From Penicillium oxalicum (Eukaryota; Ascomycota; Eurotiomycetes; Eurotiales; Aspergillaceae), in NCBI RefSeq assembly GCF_001723175.1, contig NC_064657.1:682001-746000 (forward strand): a DNA stretch of 64,000 nt, read 5' to 3'. The position numbers and the translations under genes are program-made. The number at the start of each line of letters is the position of its first letter. The first letter of the stretch is position 1. The notes below the pieces were generated by a model. It saw nothing but the letters and a program-made list of their open reading frames with translations, made no database searches and was not told where the DNA came from. Positions 1,938 to 53,440 of this stretch are shown piece after piece.

Positions 1938-2056
1938 ACATACGACCATAGGGTGTGGAGAACAGGGCTTCCCGTCCGCTCAGCCGTACTTAAGCCACAC
2001 GCCGGTCAGTTAGTAGTATGGTGGGTGACCACATGCGAATCCTGACTGTTGTATGT
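1938..2056 (+). rRNA. 5S ribosomal RNA gene
   Basis: A 119 nt match to the fungal 5S rRNA: it begins ACATACGACCATAGGGTGTGG, continues CCGTCCGCTCAGCCGTACTTAAGCCACACGCC, which includes the internal control-region segment, and ends CTGACTGTTGTATGT. The terminal arms pair (ACATACGAC with TGTTGTATGT). The GGTCAG and CTGACT strands of the second arm also pair, so the differences I recall from common Eurotiales 5S look compensated and the gene looks functional. A T-run follows at once (GTTTTT), as expected for RNA polymerase III termination. 5S genes are dispersed singly in many filamentous fungi, which fits this isolated copy. Confidence 0.92.
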
Positions 2057-2262
2057 TTTTCAAGCATTTTTTTGCCTAGCCTTGGTACAATTCCGGGGAG
2101 AGTTTATTCTAAAATAGGGCTAAAGGAGGGAGTTTATACAGAACTTGATATTTTTATAAACATTTCTGGTCGCCATTTCTACTTATATAGTCTTACTTAC
2201 CTAGTCAGATATTCTTGAAGGATTATAAGCTATAGCTGTCGCTATCTAAGTGAAATCCACCG

Positions 2263-17496: not shown

Positions 17497-18230
17497 TGTT
17501 ACGCGGTGCCGACTGGTCACTGTGAGTTAGAACGTCCTAGGCCGATACTTGCCTGCTATCCTAACTTCCAATCCTAAGACCTAGTCTCTCAATCGTACCG
17601 TTGCTTCGCAAAGCCTTACTGCGGGTTAGATCCTGTCGAGTGTCTTGCAAGACGTGCTAGAGGTGCGCGCTAAGTAGGTTAATCACTAAGTATTACCACT
17701 GAGTGAATCCCCTACCTGTAGGTTGGTTTGTCTTAGAGTTGAACCGTGGAGTGCAAAGTGCTTTAAGGTAGTAACTAAGTAATAATGTGCAATTAATCGC
17801 GAAGAACTAAATATATAATGCTAAAAAGAGTGTCCTTATATATCCAGTCCTTCCTATTACTAATAAGTCGAGACTTATTACTAATACGCTAGGACTTATC
17901 ACCGATAAGTCTATCCTATCACCGATAGGATATAGTCACGTGCGGGTTTACCGTTCTTGTATTTATAGTGTAATTCCGGTGCTAGTAAAATAGCGGCCGT
18001 TTCCTGCGTCGCGCTAACCGTCTTATAGAGTAAGAGGGTATCGTTTATATCGGTTAGCTATAGGCTACTTCTAGTACCTACCCTAAATATCTCCTCCCGG
18101 GTCCCTCGGGGCACGCCTAAGTATACCAAAACGCACGTAACAACGCTATTCCCTAGTGTCCGTAGAATAATTAGTCCTTAGTCGTCACTCAAATAACTAC
18201 GGCCCCCGCGCTTCTTTGAGGTCCGTAATA
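17497..18230 (-). repeat. Family A1 3' LTR
   Basis: TGTTACGCGGTGCCGACTGG to GGTCCGTAATA (TAACA in other copies), the reverse complement of the A2 LTRs. Followed at 18231 by TTATCCCCTCCTTCCC, the complement of a polypurine tract, which marks this as the 3' LTR of a minus-strand element. Confidence 0.85.
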
Positions 18231-18350: not shown

Positions 18351-18980
18351 ATATCTTCTAAGGCTTCTATTCGTAAGAACGCTTTAACTCGTCGTATCGA
18401 AGACGAAGGTTTTTAATCTATAATTCCTTGCGAACGTTGCGTTCGCTTAAAACGAGTGTATATTCGCGCTAATTGTTCCGATCGCTATAGTAACTACGTA
18501 CGCGCTAGCGATAGTATAAAGTGTATAATGCCGTCTCCTTCGTTTACTAATACAGAGTGGCGTCGTTTAGTTAAGTCTTAAAATTAAATTAAGGAGGAGG
18601 AGGAGGCTATCCTAGCCAAGCTCCTTCGGCTCCGAAAGCAGAAATATTTGTTACAAAAACGTGCTAGCGATTTTATCGCTCGAGACTTTAAGGAAGTCGC
18701 CGAGTTAGAAGAGTTAGAGCGTCGCGAGGTTGAAGAGCGCGAACGCCTTGAAAAAGAGAGGCTCGAATAAGAGCGTCTCGAATCCGAACAAAATAAGCGT
18801 GCTACAGAGAGTACCCGTACCGCGACCAAGGTTCCTTTATCTGCTATAGCCGACGGCTAAGTCCTTACGGCGTCGTTAGAGGATCCTACTCTAACTTAGT
18901 TATTAAATAATCCTTCCTTTTCTTAGGCCGACCTAGATTCCTCTTGTTAGTTAGGAATACCGGTCGCCCTCTCCTATCAG
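18351..18980 (+). pseudogene. Antisense Zn(II)2Cys6-like frame of family A, copy A1
   Basis: Antisense to A1 gag-pol, beside its 3' LTR. It reads from an ATA (probably a decayed ATG) through RKNALTRRIEDEGF, then CERCVRLKRV with the later cysteines partly replaced by Tyr. A Glu-rich helix EEEEAILAKLLRLRKQK follows, then long runs of ELEELERREVEERERLEKER, which should form a coiled coil. Stops are few and are TAG or TAA where Gln is expected. The last part overlaps the opposite-strand chromodomain coding end near 18950. In A2 the same frame has more intact cysteines. Confidence 0.6.
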
Positions 18981-19860: not shown

Positions 19861-19865
19861 TAGGT

Positions 19866-20603
19866 TGTTACGGACCTCAAAGAAGCGCGGGGGCCGCAGT
19901 TATTTGAGTAACGACTGAGGGCCAATCATTCTGCGGACACTAGGGAATAGCGTTATCACATGCGTTTCGGTATACTTGGGCGTGCCCCGAGGGACCCAAG
20001 AAGGAGATATTTAGGACAGGTACCAGAAGCAGCCTATAGCTAACCGACACAAACGATACCCTCTTACTCTATAAGACGGTTAGCGCGACGCAGGAAACGG
20101 CCGCCATTTTACTAGCACCGGAATTACGCTATAAGTGCGAGTGACTAGTAACTTATCACGTGACTATATCCTATCGGTGATAGGATAGACTCATCGGTGA
20201 TGAGTCCTGGCGTATCAGTGATGAGTCTCGACTTATTAGTGATAGGAAGGACTGGATATATAAGGACACTCTTTTCAACATCATGTATTTAGTTCTTCGC
20301 GATTAATTGCACATTATTACTTGGTTACTACCTTGAAGCACTTTGCACTCCACGGTTTAACTCTAAGACAAACCCAACCTATAGGTAGGGGATTCACTTA
20401 GTAGTAATACTTAGTGATTGACCTACTTAGCGCGTACCTCTAGCACGTCTTGTAAGACACTCAACAGGATTCAACCCGTAGTAAGGCTTTGCGAAGCAAC
20501 GGTACGATTGAGAGACTAGGTCTTAGGATTAGAAGTTAGGATAGCAGGCAAGTATCGGCCTAGGACGTTCTAACTCACAGTGACCAGTCGGCACCGCGTA
20601 ACA
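19866..20603 (+). repeat. Family A2 5' LTR (738 bp)
   Basis: TGTTACGGACCTCAAAGAAG to CGGCACCGCGTAACA. Matches 26693-27420 and, reversed, 17497-18230 and 28685-29287. Internal sequence starts CATTGATCGCCCTGTC; no standard TGG-type primer site is obvious. Confidence 0.9.
20157..20263 (+). promoter_or_regulatory. Family A LTR promoter: CACGTGAC box, dyad array, TATA box
   Basis: CACGTGAC (20157-20164) precedes a cluster of related dyads: CCTATCGGTGATAGG, ACTCATCGGTGATGAGT, GTATCAGTGATGAGT and TTATTAGTGATAGG. TATATAA follows at 20257-20263. The right LTR repeats the arrangement, with TATATAA at 27078-27084. The position of a repeated dyad just upstream of a TATA box suggests a binding-site array for the promoter; the factor is unknown. 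Confidence 0.55.
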
Positions 20604-20643
20604 CATTGATCGCCCTGTCTTTGGACCGTGAAGCATAGTTATT

Positions 20644-21720
20644 ATGGTAGGTAACGACAGTACCCCGAAAGGAAAAACTCCTACTCGAACTACGATAACC
20701 GAACCCGACTCAGACGACGAACGTGATATGGAGATTCAGAATCTCAAAACTATCGTCGGATAACTTCGAGAACATCTTGATTAACTAGGCGCGAACTACA
20801 ACGTCTATTCGATAAGCGTGAAGGACCACTTAGAGCAACTCCATGCTTAAGTCGTCGCTTCAGCCCTAGTAACTGCCGTTAGAGCACCTAAACTCCCGAA
20901 GGCTAAGACCTTCGATAGCAATAGACAGAAATTGCGAGGATTCCTGACGCAGATAGATATCCATATCGACGTCAACAAAGGACGCCTTGTTAGCGAAGGC
21001 AGCAAGGTCATTTTCGTGTTAGCCTACCTGCGAGGATAGGCATAGGACTAGCTCGAACCATATATCCGCGAGTACTACGAAAAAGATAGCGATAAATAGA
21101 ACACGACCACGCAATCAATCTTTAGCAGCTACACTACGTTTCGATAGCACCTCGAACGAACTTTTGGCGATATTAATACCAAGAAGATAGCTAAACGCAA
21201 ATTGAAACGAATTCGATAAACAGGATTAGTATCCGCCTACACGGCCGAGTTCATGTAACTTGCAGCGATACTATAATAGGAAGACTACGCTTTGATTCCG
21301 TACTACGACCACGGACTTAAACCCTATATTAAGGACGAGCTTGCGCGGATCGATCGACTAGACACTATAGAAAAACTTATCGACGTAGTAGTACGAATCG
21401 ACAATCGCCTATACGATCGACAAATAGAAAAAAGGGAAATTAAAGGATAGCGCCGAGGCACTAGCCGACCATTATACTATCGGTACGACAAACGACCAAA
21501 CAGACTATAAGGGATAGCGACCCCTATAGACTAAAGCTAATAGAGCTCGACGTAGCGAGACTCCTAAGCAATGAAGAGAAACGACGAAGAGACAACAACT
21601 TATGCTTTGAATATAGAAAAGCAGGGCACAGAGCGCGTAAGTGCAAGGAAAAGCACAATAACGCAAAGCCATAGGCGCGTGAGCGCAGCGACAGACGCAA
21701 CAACGCAAGGCTATAACAAA
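20644..21720 (+). pseudogene. Family A2 gag
   Basis: Begins ATG at 20644 (MVGNDSTPKGKTPTRTTIT). The capsid-like part reads KLRGFLTQIDIHIDVNKGRL and EPYIREYYEKDSDK, with TAG at expected Gln/Trp positions (three within ten codons near 21040). A CCHC zinc knuckle lies near 21600 as CFEYRKAGHRARKC, where the second Cys has become Tyr by a TG-to-TA change. A frameshift separates it from the frame of the capsid part. Gag would package the element's RNA in virus-like particles; this copy cannot make it. Confidence 0.75.
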
Positions 21721-22479
21721 TGAGGGCAACCCAGGACGATTAGGTTCCGCCTTAGCAGCTACGAGCCACCGACGATAGCTCTAAGACGCCGCTACGTAAC
21801 GGCAAGAAGGTACGCATCGCCACTACCCGCGAAGGGGACCGGGCGAGTATACGGAACCAAACCAAGAAGGGTAAAACCTTAGACACCTTCGACGACTACG
21901 AAGAACGGGCGGGAGTAATACGACAAATTACTAAGGATATAACCCCCGGAACCTTCGCAGACGATATAGTTCACCGCGGCCTAATCAGCGCAGAGCACGC
22001 GACGGAAGAATTTCCCGAAATAGATTAGGAGAATATCGAGAGTCAAGGGTGGACCCAGTACGGCCTATAGGACCCTACCGACTCCTAGGAGTTATCCTAC
22101 GAAACCCAGGAAGGAGCGGGACGGACCCCGGGAACACCAAGCGAAATCCCAGAAACTCCACCGCAACTCCCAGGGAAGGATACCACTGCACAGCCTCAGG
22201 AAAGGAACCCCCAAGAGAATACAGAACAATGTCTATGTAACAACCCAAGGTGTGCATGCAGAGGATACGCACGATACCCTTAGCACGATCTCAGAGCCGT
22301 GTAGGTTATTACGACGATAGATGCTAGGTACACGCATCAGGAAAGGTCGAGAAGAGCCTCGAACCTAGACCTCTATAATAGGAAAAGAAACCTAACTAGA
22401 AACCAGAATACGTAGGAGTCTGGTTTGAAAAAGAAAACTACGCGACGAACAGCGGTAACTCGTAGCGATAGCCTAGGGA

Positions 22480-25400
22480 CGACACATGAGGATTACGGCC
22501 AACATCATGCTCAGATCAACTATAGTAATAATCGACTCGGGAGCAGCTAGTAACTTTATGGATCCCAGGTACAAGAACCGCTATCAGATTAAAGGACAAG
22601 AAAAACCCCAGGTCGTGCTAATTATCGGACTTAACGGAGAAAGTCTTGACTAGGGATTACCTACGAAAGCGGACCCCTACTAATAGTTATTAGAGACCAC
22701 TTCGAAGTTATTAACTTCGACGTGACCCTACTAGGACAGTACGATATCGTTTTGGGCGTTCCTTGGTTAAGGAAGCATAACCCCGATATTAACTAGCAAA
22801 CTAATACCTACTCTTTAGGTGTAACTGTCGAGTCACGAGCGAGAAATAGACCGGAAGGAAACAGAACACGCTAACGATACTTAGCTATAGGGTGGCAGGT
22901 GCTCACGAGAACCCTCACGAAGGCGAACTTAAGAGGAGTTTTCGGCCAGGAGGCAGGCCTAACAGAAACACGATCGATACACGAGACATCGCGACGGTTA
23001 AGCAAGGAAGTAATATGACCGACCAGGAACTAGAGGAATATGTCCTCGTTCACGACGTAGCAATAGCTCTATGCGCCACGGAAGCGCTAGAAGAAGAACA
23101 CAAAATACTAGCGGAATATGCGGAATTCTAAGACGTGTTCACGCTACTAAGGGATAGTGAGCTACTAGAGTATAGTCCGTTCGACCATAAGATAAAGATC
23201 AAGGACGGCGAGGAACTAAAGTTTATGCCGATCTACCTACTATCGCAGAAAGAGTTAGCGACACTAGAAGAATATATAAGGATAACCTTAAGAAGGGGAA
23301 TATTCAACACTCGAAATCTTTAGCAGGATATCTAATCCTATTTGTACCGAAGAAAGGAGGGGAACTTAGAATGTGCGTTAACTACCGACAGCTCAACGAT
23401 ATTACGATTAAGGACCGGCACCCGTTACCGTTAATTAACGAAATCCAAGATATTATCAAGGAGCGAAATATTTCAGCAAGTACGATATTACTAACGCGTA
23501 CATCGACTCCGAATCAAGGAAGGAGATAGTGAAGACGGCGTTCAGAACTAAATACGGGCACTACGAGTACAAGGTTATGCCGTTTAGTCTTACTAACGCA
23601 CCCGTATTATTTCAACGGTTTATCTTCTATATCTACAAGGATACCTCGACAAGTTCGTGATCGTATACCTCGACGATATCCTAGTGTTCTCCAAAACCGA
23701 GGAAGAACACATCAGCATAACAGGAAAGTACTATAACGACTTAGGGAAGCAGAGGTAACGCTTAAACTTAAGAAATACGAGTTTTATATCCAACAGACAA
23801 GTTTCCTCGGATATACTATTAGCCTACGACTAGGAATAGAACAAGATAAAGTCAAGATACTCGAATAGCTAACGCTAATATGCGTCAAGGACGTACAGAG
23901 TTTTCTTGGACTTACGAACTACTATCGAAAATTAATACCGCAGTACTTAAAGTATATGCAGGACTATACCGATTCACCAAAAAGGGGATACCGTTCTAGT
24001 AGGACGAAGAAGCAGAAAATCATTTACCGCACTCAAGGGAATATATAACAAAAAGGCAGGAGAAGCGATCCTAGCTATATTTAACTACGATACCAATTAT
24101 TATAGAAACCGACGCATCTGATTTCGCGCTTAGAGTATAGCTCATACAACTAGGACAAGACGGCAAGCTCAGACCTATCGCTTTCTGTCTCGCAAGATAA
24201 TACCCGCGGAAATCAACTACGACGTACACGACAAGGAACTGCTAGCTATATAGTGTCAGCATTTCAGACGTGGAGCCTACTTAGAAGGGGCCAAGCACAT
24301 AGTGATCGTTCGGACAGATCACCACAATCTCACGTACTTTACGACTACGAAGAAACTTACAAGGCGACAAGCTAGATAGGCGGAGACCTTAGCCTAATAC
24401 GACTTCAAGATCGTGCACTATAAAGGGACCGAAAACACGGTCGCGGACGCGCTTAGTCGACGACCCGACTATGAACTAGGTACCAAGGAGGTAGTACTAG
24501 CAATCTTAGCAAAAGATAACGAAGGAAACATCGTCTATAATTACTAGACGCTCGCAGCGACTAGCGAGGTCCAGAACGACGAATAGATCGAAAGGATTCG
24601 AGACGGTATACGGACCGACGAATTACTACAAAAGGTTCTAGGCAACAACACAGCCCTACGAATAACGGCTTAGTCTACATTCATAGACTAGTGTACGTTC
24701 CCAGAAACCTCCAAACACAGATTATATAGCTACATCACGACGAACTAATACAGGGACACCCTAGTATCGAAAAAACCATCGAAAAATCACGCGGAATTAC
24801 TATATCCGGCACTATACAGAAAAGTCCGGAGTACATTCAGCAATATAACTCGTGTCAACGAAACAAGACGTCACGACACGCACTATACAGGGAGATAGAA
24901 TTGGCCGAAGTACCATAATAACCATAGGAATAGATTATAATAGACTTCATAACGAAGTTACCTGTCTCAGAAGGAAATATATAATAATGTAGTCGTCGAT
25001 CGACTACTAAGTACGCACACATAATACCGACAACGGAAACTATCGATACACGACAGATAGCCAACCTACTACTTAAATATGTGTTTGCTAACCATAGGAA
25101 CCGAGCAAGATTACCTCGGACAGAGACAAACTGTTTATATCGAATATATAGCAGTCATTGGCGGATTAACTCGGTATTGAGCATAGACTCTCTACCGCGT
25201 ACCCCGCAAACTAACGGACAAACCGAAAGAGTCAACTAAACTCTAGAACAATACCTACGACACTACGTTAATTACTAACAGGATAACTAGGCAGGATTGT
25301 TGCTAATAGCGCAGTTAGCGTACAATAACGCCATACACGCTACCACCAGAGAAACACCATTCTTCGCTAACTATAGGTTTAATCCTACTATTATCGGGAA

Positions 25401-25965
25401 AACTATCGGAAAACAGCCACTCGCAGAATCGTCGAGACTACTAGCGACTAGGCTTAAGTAACTGCATTTGCAACTAATAAGGGACATCGAGTTTCTTCTT
25501 AATCTGCGCATAAAAAACTACTACGATTAGTCGCGCCAGGAGGCGCCGGACTTTCGAAAGGGGGAGAAAGTTTACCTCTTACGACGCAACATCGCACTAT
25601 ACGACCTAGCGCAAAGCTCGACCACCTTAAATTAGGACTATTTGAAATCGAAGCAAAAACAGGACCGCTTAATTACCGATTAAAGCTACCTAATAGTATG
25701 CGACGCATCTATGCCATATTTTATGTCTTATTATTAGAAAAAGCACCTAAGAGCGCCAAAATCGCTACCAACGTGAAATCGGAGAAGAAACCGAAAATAA
25801 TATAAGGTCGAAGAAATCCTAGACACCAACAAAATCAGCGGAAAGCCTTACTACTTAGTAAGTGAAAGGATACGATACCTCAGAAAATATATAGGAACCT
25901 ATTAAGAACCTAAGGGGCTGCTACTAGCTAGTTCGACGGTTTCACCACAGGAGAGGGCGACCCGG
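22480..25965 (+). pseudogene. Family A2 pol: protease, RT, RNase H, integrase, chromodomain
   Basis: Domains in order: aspartic protease (IDSGAASNFMD near 22540); reverse transcriptase with [10 protein letters not shown] and [10 protein letters not shown] (23371-23450), then YLDDILVFSKT (about 23665-23698); RNase H around 24100-24460, where a FKIVHYKGTENTVADALSR-type end is visible near 24405-24465; integrase zinc-binding part near 24720-24890 (HHDE ... CQRNKTSRHA), core to about 25250; chromodomain KVEEILDTNKISGKPYYLV near 25805-25862. It is broken by frequent TAGs and several frameshifts. The order (integrase after RNase H) and chromodomain place it in Ty3/gypsy chromoviruses. Confidence 0.85.
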
Positions 25966-25979
25966 TATTCCTAACTAAC

Positions 25980-26572
25980 TAAGAGGAATCTAGGTCGGCC
26001 AAGAAAAGGAAGGATTATTTAATAACTAAGTCAGAGTAGGATCCTCTGACGACGCCGCAAGGACTTAGCCGTCGGCCATAGCAGATAAAGGAACCCGGTC
26101 GCGGCACGGGTACTCTCTGTAGCACGCTTATTTTGTTCGGATTCGAGACGCTCTTGTTCGAGCCTCTCTTTTTCAAGGCGTTCGCGCTCTTCAACCTCGC
26201 GACGCTCTAACTCTTCTAACTCGGCGACTTCCTTGAAGTCTCGAGCGATGAAATCGCTAGCACGTTTTTGTAACAAACGTTTCTGCTTTCGGAGCCGAAG
26301 GAGCTTAGCTAGGATAGCCTCCTCCTCCTCCTTAATTTGATTTTAGACTTAACTAAACGACGCCACTCCGTATCAGTAAACGAAGGAGACGGTATCATAC
26401 ACTTTACACTACCGCTAGCGCGCACGCAGTTACTATAGCGATCGGAATAATCGGCGCGAATACACACTCGTTTCAAGCGAACGCAACGTTCGCAAGGAAT
26501 CACAGATTAAAAACCTTCGTCTTCGATACGACGAGTTAAAGCGTTCTTACGAACAGAAGCCTTGGAAGATAT
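25980..26572 (-). pseudogene. Antisense Zn(II)2Cys6-like/coiled-coil frame of family A, copy A2
   Basis: Antisense to pol, between the chromodomain and the 3' LTR. From a probable start at 26572 (ATA in place of ATG) it reads KASVRKNALTRRIEDEGF, one TAA, then CERCVRLKRVCIRAD and YSDRYSNCVRASGSVKC. Cys spacing is C-2-C-6-C-8-[Tyr]-2-C-8-C, which fits the fungal Zn(II)2Cys6 DNA-binding cluster if the Tyr was once Cys (TG-to-TA change). One base is missing near 26335 relative to A1. After it comes a long Glu/Arg-rich coiled coil (VAELEELERREVEERERLE). Zinc-cluster proteins are fungal transcription factors; that role here is inference. Confidence 0.65.
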
Positions 26573-26692
26573 AGTTAGCAGAATAGGCTATAAGAAAAGA
26601 AATAGGGAGAAAACAGAAAAACAAGCAAATAAACCTGAGGGGACACTAACGCTTAAATCCTTTGGGACAAAGGACAGGGAAGGAGGGGATAA

Positions 26693-27420
26693 TATTACGG
26701 ACCTTAAAGAAGCGCGGGGGCAGTTATTTGAGTAACGACTAAGGACTAATCATTCTGCGGACACTAGGGAATAGCGTTGTTACGTGCGTTTCGGTATACT
26801 TAGGCGTGCCCCGAGGGACCCAAGGAGGAGACATTCAGGGCAGGCACCAGAAGCAGCCTACAGCTAACCGACACAAACGACACCCTCTTACTCTATAAGA
26901 CGGTTAGCGCGACGCAGGAAACGGCCGCTATTTTACTAGCACCGGAATTACGCCATAGTGCGAGTACTAGTAACTTATCACGTGACTATATCCTATCGGT
27001 GATAGGATGGACTTATCGGTGATGAGTCCTGGCGCATTAGTGATAGTCTCGACTTATTAGTGATAGGAAGGACTGGATATATAAGGACACTCTTTTCATC
27101 ATGTATTTAGTTCTTCGCGATCAATTGCATATTGTTACTTGGTTACTACCTTAAAGCACTTTGCACTCCACGGTTCAACTCTAAGATAAACCTAACCTAC
27201 AGGTAGGGGATTCACTCAGTAGTAACACTTAGTGATTACCTACTTGGCGCGCACCTCTGGCACGTCTTGCAAGACACTCAACAGGATTCAACCCGCAGTA
27301 AGGCTTTGCGAAGCAACGGTACGATTGAGAGACCAGGTCTTAGGATTGGAAGTTAGGATAGCAGGCAAGTATCGGCCCAGGACGTTCTAACTCACAGTGA
27401 CCAGTCGGCACCGCGTAACA
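26693..27420 (+). repeat. Family A2 3' LTR (728 bp)
   Basis: Starts TATTACGGACC (decayed TGTTACGG) and ends CCGCGTAACA. It is preceded by the polypurine tract GGACAAAGGACAGGGAAGGAGGGGATAA at 26665-26692. It differs from the left LTR by scattered C/T and G/A changes and short indels. Confidence 0.9.
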
Positions 27421-27425
27421 TAGGT

Positions 27426-28184: not shown

Positions 28185-28684
28185 NNNNNNNNNNNNNNNN
28201 NNNNNNNNNNNNNNNNNNNNNNNNNNNNNNNNNNNNNNNNNNNNNNNNNNNNNNNNNNNNNNNNNNNNNNNNNNNNNNNNNNNNNNNNNNNNNNNNNNNN
28301 NNNNNNNNNNNNNNNNNNNNNNNNNNNNNNNNNNNNNNNNNNNNNNNNNNNNNNNNNNNNNNNNNNNNNNNNNNNNNNNNNNNNNNNNNNNNNNNNNNNN
28401 NNNNNNNNNNNNNNNNNNNNNNNNNNNNNNNNNNNNNNNNNNNNNNNNNNNNNNNNNNNNNNNNNNNNNNNNNNNNNNNNNNNNNNNNNNNNNNNNNNNN
28501 NNNNNNNNNNNNNNNNNNNNNNNNNNNNNNNNNNNNNNNNNNNNNNNNNNNNNNNNNNNNNNNNNNNNNNNNNNNNNNNNNNNNNNNNNNNNNNNNNNNN
28601 NNNNNNNNNNNNNNNNNNNNNNNNNNNNNNNNNNNNNNNNNNNNNNNNNNNNNNNNNNNNNNNNNNNNNNNNNNNNNNNNNNNN
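28185..28684. other. Assembly gap (500 N)
   Basis: Exactly 500 N, so probably a placeholder length. Comparison with A2 shows the missing part of A1 equals roughly 20465-24311 there, about 3.8 kb. Confidence 0.95.
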
Positions 28685-53079: not shown

Positions 53080-53440
53080 ACCCTGCGTGCCCTACGTGCT
53101 CTATATGCCCTGCGTGCCCTGTATACCTTAGGTGCCTTAGGTGCCGTAGGTGTCTTAGATGCCCTAGGTGTCTTAGGTACCGTAGGTGTCTTAGGTGCCG
53201 TAGGTGTCTTAGGTACCTTAGGTATCTTAGGTACCGTGGGTGTCTTAGGTGCCGTGGGTGTCTTAGGTGCCGTGGGTGTCTTAGGTGCCGTAGGTATCTT
53301 AGGTGCTAAGGGTGTCTTAGGTGCTAAGGGTGTCTTAGGTGCTAAGGGTGTCTTAGGTAGCCTGCGTTTCTAGGGTGCTAAGGGTGTCTTAGGTAGCCTA
53401 TATTTCTAGGGTGCCCTACGTCTCTAGGGTACCTTATATA
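53080..53440. repeat. Minisatellite, unit GGTGTCTTAGGTGCCGTG
   Basis: About 18 bp units with 6 and 12 bp sub-periodicity, preceded by CCCTGCGTGCCCTACGTG-type units. In one frame it encodes GVLGAV repeats, in another CLRCRG. TG dinucleotides are abundant in this array although the flanks have lost most of them. Confidence 0.8.

What the first reader, a model, noticed from the sequence alone, without database searches (positions are those of the whole stretch)
25980..26572. Ty3/gypsy family A carries an antisense Zn(II)2Cys6-like coiled-coil gene
Opposite to pol and next to the 3' LTR lies a frame with cysteine spacing C-2-C-6-C-8-[C>Y]-2-C-8-C followed by a long Glu/Arg coiled coil, the layout of fungal zinc-cluster regulators. 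It occurs in both A copies (18351-18980, 25980-26572), in the same place, with different point decay, so it belongs to the element. A retrotransposon that encodes its own zinc-cluster protein on the opposite strand would be new to me; it might act on the LTR dyad array or on host chromatin. Spacing and copies are seen; function is inference.
Basis: partly seen in the sequence, partly recalled or inferred. Interest (0 to 1): 0.88.

Follow-up and report, generated by a model that had tools for sequence, protein, structure and literature searches.

The report
Retrotransposon's antisense zinc-cluster gene (BRTN)
A fungal jumping gene carries, on its opposite strand, a decayed copy of a small gene for a protein that probably binds zinc and pairs up; it is related to a gene already reported from grey-mould retrotransposons, and may help the element control its own expression.

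Summary
The antisense gene is real, but the kind is known. The host is Penicillium oxalicum. The window holds two nested copies of one Ty3/gypsy chromodomain element; B (19866-27420) sits inside A. Both carry the frame between pol and the 3' LTR, broken mainly by RIP (CpA to TpA). The genome search found 20 copies of the stretch; 145 of 168 in-frame stops are C-to-T or G-to-A type, 19 of the rest one shared TAG.

Three protein searches gave 201 relatives. One is the Botrytis protein "Putative BRTN", product of the published antisense gene brtn. Among 147 non-redundant relatives the six cysteines are the six most conserved columns (98.5-100%), spaced as in fungal zinc clusters, followed by a coil with a 3.5-residue repeat.

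The window's own frames do not match Pfam Zn_clus, and relatives match weakly, so it may work like a zinc cluster but is not filed as one. I read it as a minimal DNA-binding dimer regulating the element, perhaps through four dyads (20-21 bp apart) just upstream of the LTR TATA box. DNA binding, target and expression are inferred. Codon-position counts within this genome gave no sign of selection, and no DNA from other species was found.

The parts
26026..26572 (-). antisense gene of copy B, BRTN family (RIP-decayed; start codon reads ATA; up to the shared TAG, placed by alignment to copy A)
26399..26494 (-). six-cysteine box of copy B (fourth Cys reads Tyr)
   Evidence: conservation
18351..18899 (+). 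antisense gene of copy A (RIP-decayed; three of six Cys read Tyr; coil in the same frame)
19866..27420 (+). element B, Ty3/gypsy with chromodomain, inserted in element A; target duplication TAGGT at 19861-19865 and 27421-27425
19866..20603 (+). 5' LTR of element B (TGTTACG...CGTAACA)
26693..27420 (+). 3' LTR of element B (starts TATTACG); its edge lies 120 bp from the antisense start codon
26991..27068 (.). LTR dyad array: four ATCRGTGAT-type cores 20-21 bp apart in little-RIPped copies; also in the 5' LTR near 20169-20246
27078..27086 (+). TATA-like TATATAAGG of the LTR just downstream of the array
23457..23788 (+). reverse transcriptase remains of element B (sense strand)
   Evidence: RVT_1, two weak matches below the cut-off
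17497..18230 (-). 3' LTR of element A (ends approximate, from the repeat pairs)

Best explanation
The frame is a RIP-decayed copy of the BRTN-family antisense gene of a Boty-like (chromodomain Ty3/gypsy) retrotransposon in Penicillium oxalicum. Shown: place, orientation, many copies, homology to BRTN, six near-invariant cysteines with zinc-cluster spacing, and a heptad repeat after them. Inferred: the six cysteines bind two zinc ions as in fungal zinc clusters; the coil makes a dimer; the protein is made from an antisense transcript starting in or near the 3' LTR; and the dimer binds DNA and regulates the element, most likely at the dyad array upstream of the LTR TATA box. Many relatives have an acidic, aromatic C-terminal tail that could activate transcription. 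In P. oxalicum the shared TAG removes that tail, so here the protein would lean towards repression or competition.
For: Homology to BRTN: P0138 found at E 1.6e-59 with profile A3; pairwise E 1e-15 with the P. oxalicum frame L011 and 2e-17 with P0001. Cysteines: the six most conserved columns among 147 non-redundant relatives; 124 of 131 that span the box keep all six, six of the seven exceptions being C to Y and one C to W. Nearest solved structures by sequence: with profile A4, 19 PDB sequences at E up to 10, PUT3 1ajy first (0.075), 1zme fourth (0.36), LAC9 1cld (2.7); with A3, 7 sequences, PUT3 second (0.47) and fourth (0.79). Pfam Zn_clus is the family matched by most members (43 of 65 at E up to 10, best 0.0028; the next family 8 of 65). 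Coil: hydrophobic repeat of 3.50 residues in 137 segments, power 0.94 against at most 0.25 in 50 shuffles. Coding outside pol: in two of the three little-RIPped copies the pol stop lies 14 nt inside the end of the antisense frame (in the third the pol tail was not found), so pol cannot explain conservation of box and coil. Tail: 108 of 158 relatives of at least 150 aa fit a loose aromatic-then-acid pattern of mine, mean net charge of the last 50 residues -5.9 in 127. LTR array: 8 short dyad windows in the L011 LTR against a mean of 0.27, largest 3, in 300 shuffles; the two-core pattern occurs 38 times in the genome against 0 for the reversed control.
Against: No Zn_clus match for the window's frames or L011. 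Relatives match only weakly, and single coil-type families reach similar values in a few members (GRXCR1-2_C 0.0019 in 3 of 65). The other top PDB matches are coiled coils or unrelated. Profile comparison with eight zinc clusters of this genome aligned only half of the box and out of register (probability 25% and 42%). The loop between the third and fourth cysteine is 8 residues here and 9 in BRTN against 6 in those eight, without their proline and [K/R]-C-D, so classical base contact is doubtful. No codon-position bias within this genome. All 19 copies covering it carry a TAG at codon 183, so the copies that spread here probably lacked the tail. No structure model was obtained (job failed). 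No expression data, and no DNA of relatives to test selection or LTR arrays elsewhere (searches found none).
Confidence: 0.6

Rival explanations
1. The protein is real but is not a transcription regulator: the zinc box and coil bind RNA or nucleoprotein, for instance to package or import the element.
For: Residues typical of the host's DNA-binding clusters are missing and Zn_clus matches are weak. Passages of a review on plant antisense ORFs suggest accessory roles such as entry into the nucleus, and report that some of these peptides (Grande's) localise there.
Against: Cysteine spacing and the best relevant solved-structure matches are those of DNA-binding zinc clusters with a following coil; zinc knuckles of gag have another spacing (recalled).
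Confidence: 0.25
2. The strand matters as antisense RNA: transcription from the 3' LTR makes double-stranded RNA or interferes with gag-pol, and the protein is secondary.
For: The gene lies tail to tail with pol and ends inside it; the review raises dsRNA as an alternative; passages of the Botrytis paper report small RNAs from BcGypsy1, the subfamily with brtn.
Against: RNA function alone does not keep six cysteines and a heptad repeat in relatives this diverse.
Confidence: 0.1
3. No gene: a chance open frame opposite pol whose conservation is borrowed from pol.
For: Past the TAG the frame does overlap the chromodomain tail of pol, and reads there what relatives read; codon positions vary evenly within this genome.
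Against: Box and coil lie beyond the pol stop; relatives in other genera with near-invariant cysteines.
Confidence: 0.02
4. The dyad array is read by a host factor (GATA or bZIP type) and has nothing to do with the antisense protein.
For: 4-5 HGATAR-type matches (both strands) stand in the 156-bp stretch of the little-RIPped copies; TATC-N3-GATA occurs 10 times in the window against 3.5 expected, at most 8 in 100 shuffles; other units have ATGAGTC-like halves. Motif identities are recalled. There is no direct link between protein and array.
Against: In little-RIPped copies three of the four cores begin CATC rather than TATC, so part of the GATA look comes from RIP; by eye the 38 array matches in the genome share the LTR's spacer letters, so none looks like a host promoter.
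Confidence: 0.45

Closest known systems
brtn / BRTN of Boty-like retrotransposons (Botrytis cinerea; Zhao et al. 2011, Virology 417:248)
   Same: Antisense gene at the 3' end of a gypsy element whose gag-pol ends with a chromodomain (passages); homologous protein with the same six-cysteine box and coil (P0138)
   Different: 36-38% identical over the aligned part; other host class; here decayed by RIP and cut by a shared TAG. I could not read the paper, so I cannot say whether it named the zinc box
Antisense ORFs between pol and the 3' LTR in plant elements (Grande, RIRE2, Retand, PvRetro13; PMC7264820, passages read)
   Same: Position and orientation
   Different: 'zinc' occurs 0 times in the main text, and the passages report no clear similarity to other proteins; no homology tested here
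Fungal zinc-cluster regulators such as PUT3, LAC9, GAL4
   Same: Cysteine order and approximate spacing; coil follows; PUT3 and LAC9 among PDB sequence matches
   Different: Longer third loop, no proline or [K/R]-C-D signature, weak or no Pfam match, only about 200 aa without the regulator domains (recalled)
HBZ of HTLV-1 (recalled)
   Same: Antisense gene started from the 3' LTR, coiled-coil nuclear regulator of the element's own promoter
   Different: bZIP, no zinc cluster; no relation claimed; here the antisense transcript is only inferred

Membership tests
BRTN family (antisense gene of Boty-like elements) | Sequence homology to BRTN | tested here: met
BRTN family (antisense gene of Boty-like elements) | Antisense, between pol and 3' LTR | tested here: met
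BRTN family (antisense gene of Boty-like elements) | Transcribed from the antisense strand | not testable with these tools
   no RNA data; one Monilinia transcript similar to pol and BRTN is reported, strand not stated in the passage (PMC5987419)
Zn(II)2Cys6 zinc cluster (PF00172) | Six cysteines, C-x2-C-x6-C-x5-12-C-x2-C-x6-8-C (pattern recalled) | tested here: met
   little-RIPped copies; 140 of 201 relatives carry a loose form of it
Zn(II)2Cys6 zinc cluster (PF00172) | Match to the Pfam profile | tested here: not met
   no match for the window's frames or L011; weak matches in 43 of 65 relatives at E up to 10, best 0.0028 (whether any passes the curated cut-off is not shown there)
Zn(II)2Cys6 zinc cluster (PF00172) | [K/R]-C-D and proline loop of the host's own clusters | tested here: not met
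   compare
Zn(II)2Cys6 zinc cluster (PF00172) | Strict PROSITE-type signature (recalled) | tested here: inconclusive
   11 of 201 relatives fit; UniRef labels P0032, P0077, P0145 and P0192 'Zn(2)-C6 fungal-type'
Zn(II)2Cys6 zinc cluster (PF00172) | Binuclear zinc fold, DNA binding | not testable with these tools
   structure job failed, then tool switched off
Ty3/gypsy chromodomain element | LTRs TG...CA with 5-bp target duplication | tested here: met
   (the 3' LTR of copy B starts TA)
Ty3/gypsy chromodomain element | RT, then integrase, then chromodomain at the pol end | tested here: met
   RVT_1 in the copies of L011 (C5:1368526-1369005) and L014 (C7:1676147-1676629), upstream of the L011 and L014 pol ends; integrase H2C2 in L011, SH3_Tf2-1 in L011 and L014; Chromo in L010, L011, L014. 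RT is weak in window copy B
Ty3/gypsy chromodomain element | tRNA primer site and gag | not tested
   not looked for; five RIP-broken pieces of copy B gave no Pfam match

The most novel reading that the evidence does not exclude
Across Pezizomycotina, BRTN-type antisense genes are a family of minimal zinc-cluster dimers that each element carries to read a dyad array in its own LTR: a fungal parallel to the antisense regulator of HTLV-1, and a class of zinc-cluster protein without base contacts of the GAL4 kind.
Probability: 0.28. Interest if true: 0.75.

Novelty: new member of a known kind. Interest (0 to 1): 0.42.

Why it matters
What antisense genes of LTR retrotransposons do is not known (PMC7264820, passages). 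A conserved six-cysteine box plus heptad coil gives the fungal ones a concrete, testable biochemical hypothesis, and the dyad array next to the LTR TATA box gives a candidate target. It also explains some short 'Zn(2)-C6' or hypothetical proteins in annotations: P0003, listed as hypothetical protein POX_g09116 of P. oxalicum on a contig as long as C7, has the sequence of the broken frame in copy L014.

Tried and rejected
Rejected: chance frame; conservation borrowed from pol (box and coil lie outside pol). Tried without result: codon-position test among copies (even counts); relatives in viral contigs and in prokaryote genome contigs, none; profile comparison with host zinc clusters (half-register only); NCBIfam (nothing relevant); a structure model. 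GATA sites as the sense of the dyads: not excluded; RIP creates part of the GATA look, but 4-5 matches remain in little-RIPped copies. Literature: eight searches. I opened passages of five papers (PMC8365987, PMC4227169, PMC7264820, PMC8773270, PMC5987419); the fourth had nothing relevant; all other listed papers were seen as listings only. Nothing seen calls an antisense retrotransposon product a zinc cluster, but the key paper is not held.

Limits of counts. Alignment A4 holds 65 of the 123 relatives known then, 63 of them picked from the 81 with the motif; therefore aligned all 201 (147 after an 80% identity filter), though to a profile built from A4. Searches scored only 8000 candidates each. 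The stop count runs over 208 codon columns in the register of L014, skips gapped codons, and does not require the CpA context. Two of 20 copies are partial.

Full report
Where it is. The window is G000:C8:682001-746000 of a 30.8-Mb genome in 17 contigs. The host is Penicillium oxalicum: the relative P0003 carries that name and lies on a contig of 2,593,408 bases, the length of contig C7. The window holds two copies of one element. Copy B spans 19866-27420 on the plus strand, with LTRs of 738 and 728 bases that begin TGTTACG (TATTACG in the 3' copy) and end CGTAACA, flanked by TAGGT on both sides. It is inserted in copy A, which runs on the minus strand and is interrupted further by a run of N at 28185-28684.

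What the element is. In little-RIPped copies the pol end shows integrase H2C2 (8.7e-21, L011), the SH3_Tf2-1 domain (4.4e-18, L014) and a chromodomain (9.2e-09 to 4.5e-07 in three pieces); reverse transcriptase lies upstream in the copies of L011 and L014. In the window's copy B, reverse transcriptase remains lie at 23457-23788 on the plus strand, both matches weak and below the cut-off, and five RIP-broken pieces gave no Pfam match. It is a Ty3/gypsy element with a chromodomain, as Boty is in a passage of PMC4227169.

The antisense frame. Both window copies carry it as described, copy B with a frameshift before the coil. The genome search found 20 copies of the 651-bp stretch, 20 of 20 candidates scored. 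Three have near-normal CpA/TpG content (ratio 0.92-0.94); the other 17 are graded down from 0.53 to 0.04, the mark of RIP. Of 168 in-frame stops over the 20 copies, 145 are explained by a C-to-T or G-to-A change from a little-RIPped copy (context not required), 19 are one TAG at codon 183 shared by all 19 copies that cover it, and 4 are neither. Aligned relatives have Gln there (P0001) and read on across the tail of pol. In two of three little-RIPped copies the pol stop lies 14 nt inside the antisense frame as cut by that TAG (not found in the third); box and coil therefore lie outside pol.

Relatives. Three protein searches gave 201 different proteins, a lower bound. P0138 is the Botrytis cinerea protein that UniRef labels 'Putative BRTN'; it matches the L011 frame at 38% identity over 104 aligned positions and P0001 at 36% over 184. 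brtn is a published antisense gene of Boty-like retrotransposons (title in reference lists; described in passages of PMC7264820, and PMC8365987). The paper itself is not held. A Monilinia transcript similar to truncated pol and BRTN is mentioned in PMC5987419 (passage).

The box and the coil. When all 201 relatives were aligned to a profile and thinned to 147 below 80% identity, the six cysteines were the six most conserved columns (98.5-100%); 124 of 131 that span the box keep all six; the exceptions are six C to Y and one C to W, and C to Y is what RIP makes of a cysteine codon. The residues after the box repeat their hydrophobic letters every 3.50 residues (137 segments; power 0.94 against at most 0.25 in 50 shuffles), the sign of a coiled coil. 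The mean net charge is +4.2 in the box and -5.9 in the last 50 residues (127 proteins).

Is it a zinc cluster? Spacing says yes, and PUT3 is the best PDB match for one profile and the second for another, at E 0.075 and 0.47, which is weak; other matches are coils or unrelated. Pfam Zn_clus matches 43 of 65 relatives at E up to 10, best 0.0028, while the next family matches 8; at E up to 1 it was 7 of 21 members of A1. Against this, the window's frames and the L011 frame have no match, a few members match single coil families as well, profile comparison with eight host zinc clusters was weak and half out of register, and the [K/R]-C-D and proline of those clusters are missing. I say that it probably works like a zinc cluster and do not file it in PF00172.

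Selection. Within this genome, variants by transversion fall 5, 5 and 4 on the three codon positions (182 columns each), which says nothing for selection; copies decay after insertion. The case for a working gene rests on protein conservation between genera. No DNA of relatives was found in the collections searched, so dN/dS between species is open.

The LTR array. In the three little-RIPped copies four cores of the form ATC-N-(G/C)-TGAT stand 20, 21 and 21 bp apart, just upstream of TATATAAGG. The L011 LTR has 8 dyad windows, which belong to three inverted repeats, all in the array, against a mean of 0.27 and at most 3 in 300 shuffles. The pattern of two neighbouring cores occurs 38 times in the genome and its reversed control 0 times; by eye all 38 show the spacer letters of this LTR. 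Two-turn spacing of dyads before a TATA box is what a dimeric regulator would use. That the antisense protein is that regulator is my inference; a host factor is at least as likely for the array itself, and GATA-type sites remain in it.

Verdict. A sharp and correct reading of raw sequence. The thing is a new member of a known kind, the BRTN genes, with a concrete biochemical hypothesis that I did not see in the papers I could open.

Noticed in passing
window 28185-28684: A run of 500 N; it makes all six frames look open for 178-198 codons in an ORF listing.
   Followed up: yes
window 26991-27068 and about 20169-20246: LTR array of four dyads 20-21 bp apart upstream of the TATA box; 38 two-core matches in the genome, by eye all with this LTR's spacers.
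   Followed up: partly
L014:1415-1588 (+): The pol tail after the chromodomain carries NPGRPKKRK, which looks like an AT-hook (motif recalled; sequence).
   Followed up: no
L009-L027, codon 183 of the antisense frame: All 19 copies that cover it share one TAG where P0001 has Gln, so the copies that spread in this genome had probably already lost the acidic tail.
   Followed up: partly
window 53124-53430: Minisatellite of 18-bp units and multiples.
   Followed up: no
window 1938-2057 (+): 5S ribosomal RNA gene.
   Followed up: no
P0079: A Pseudogymnoascus destructans gene model of 337 aa joins another N-terminal part to a BRTN-type box and coil; could be a model error or a fusion.
   Followed up: no
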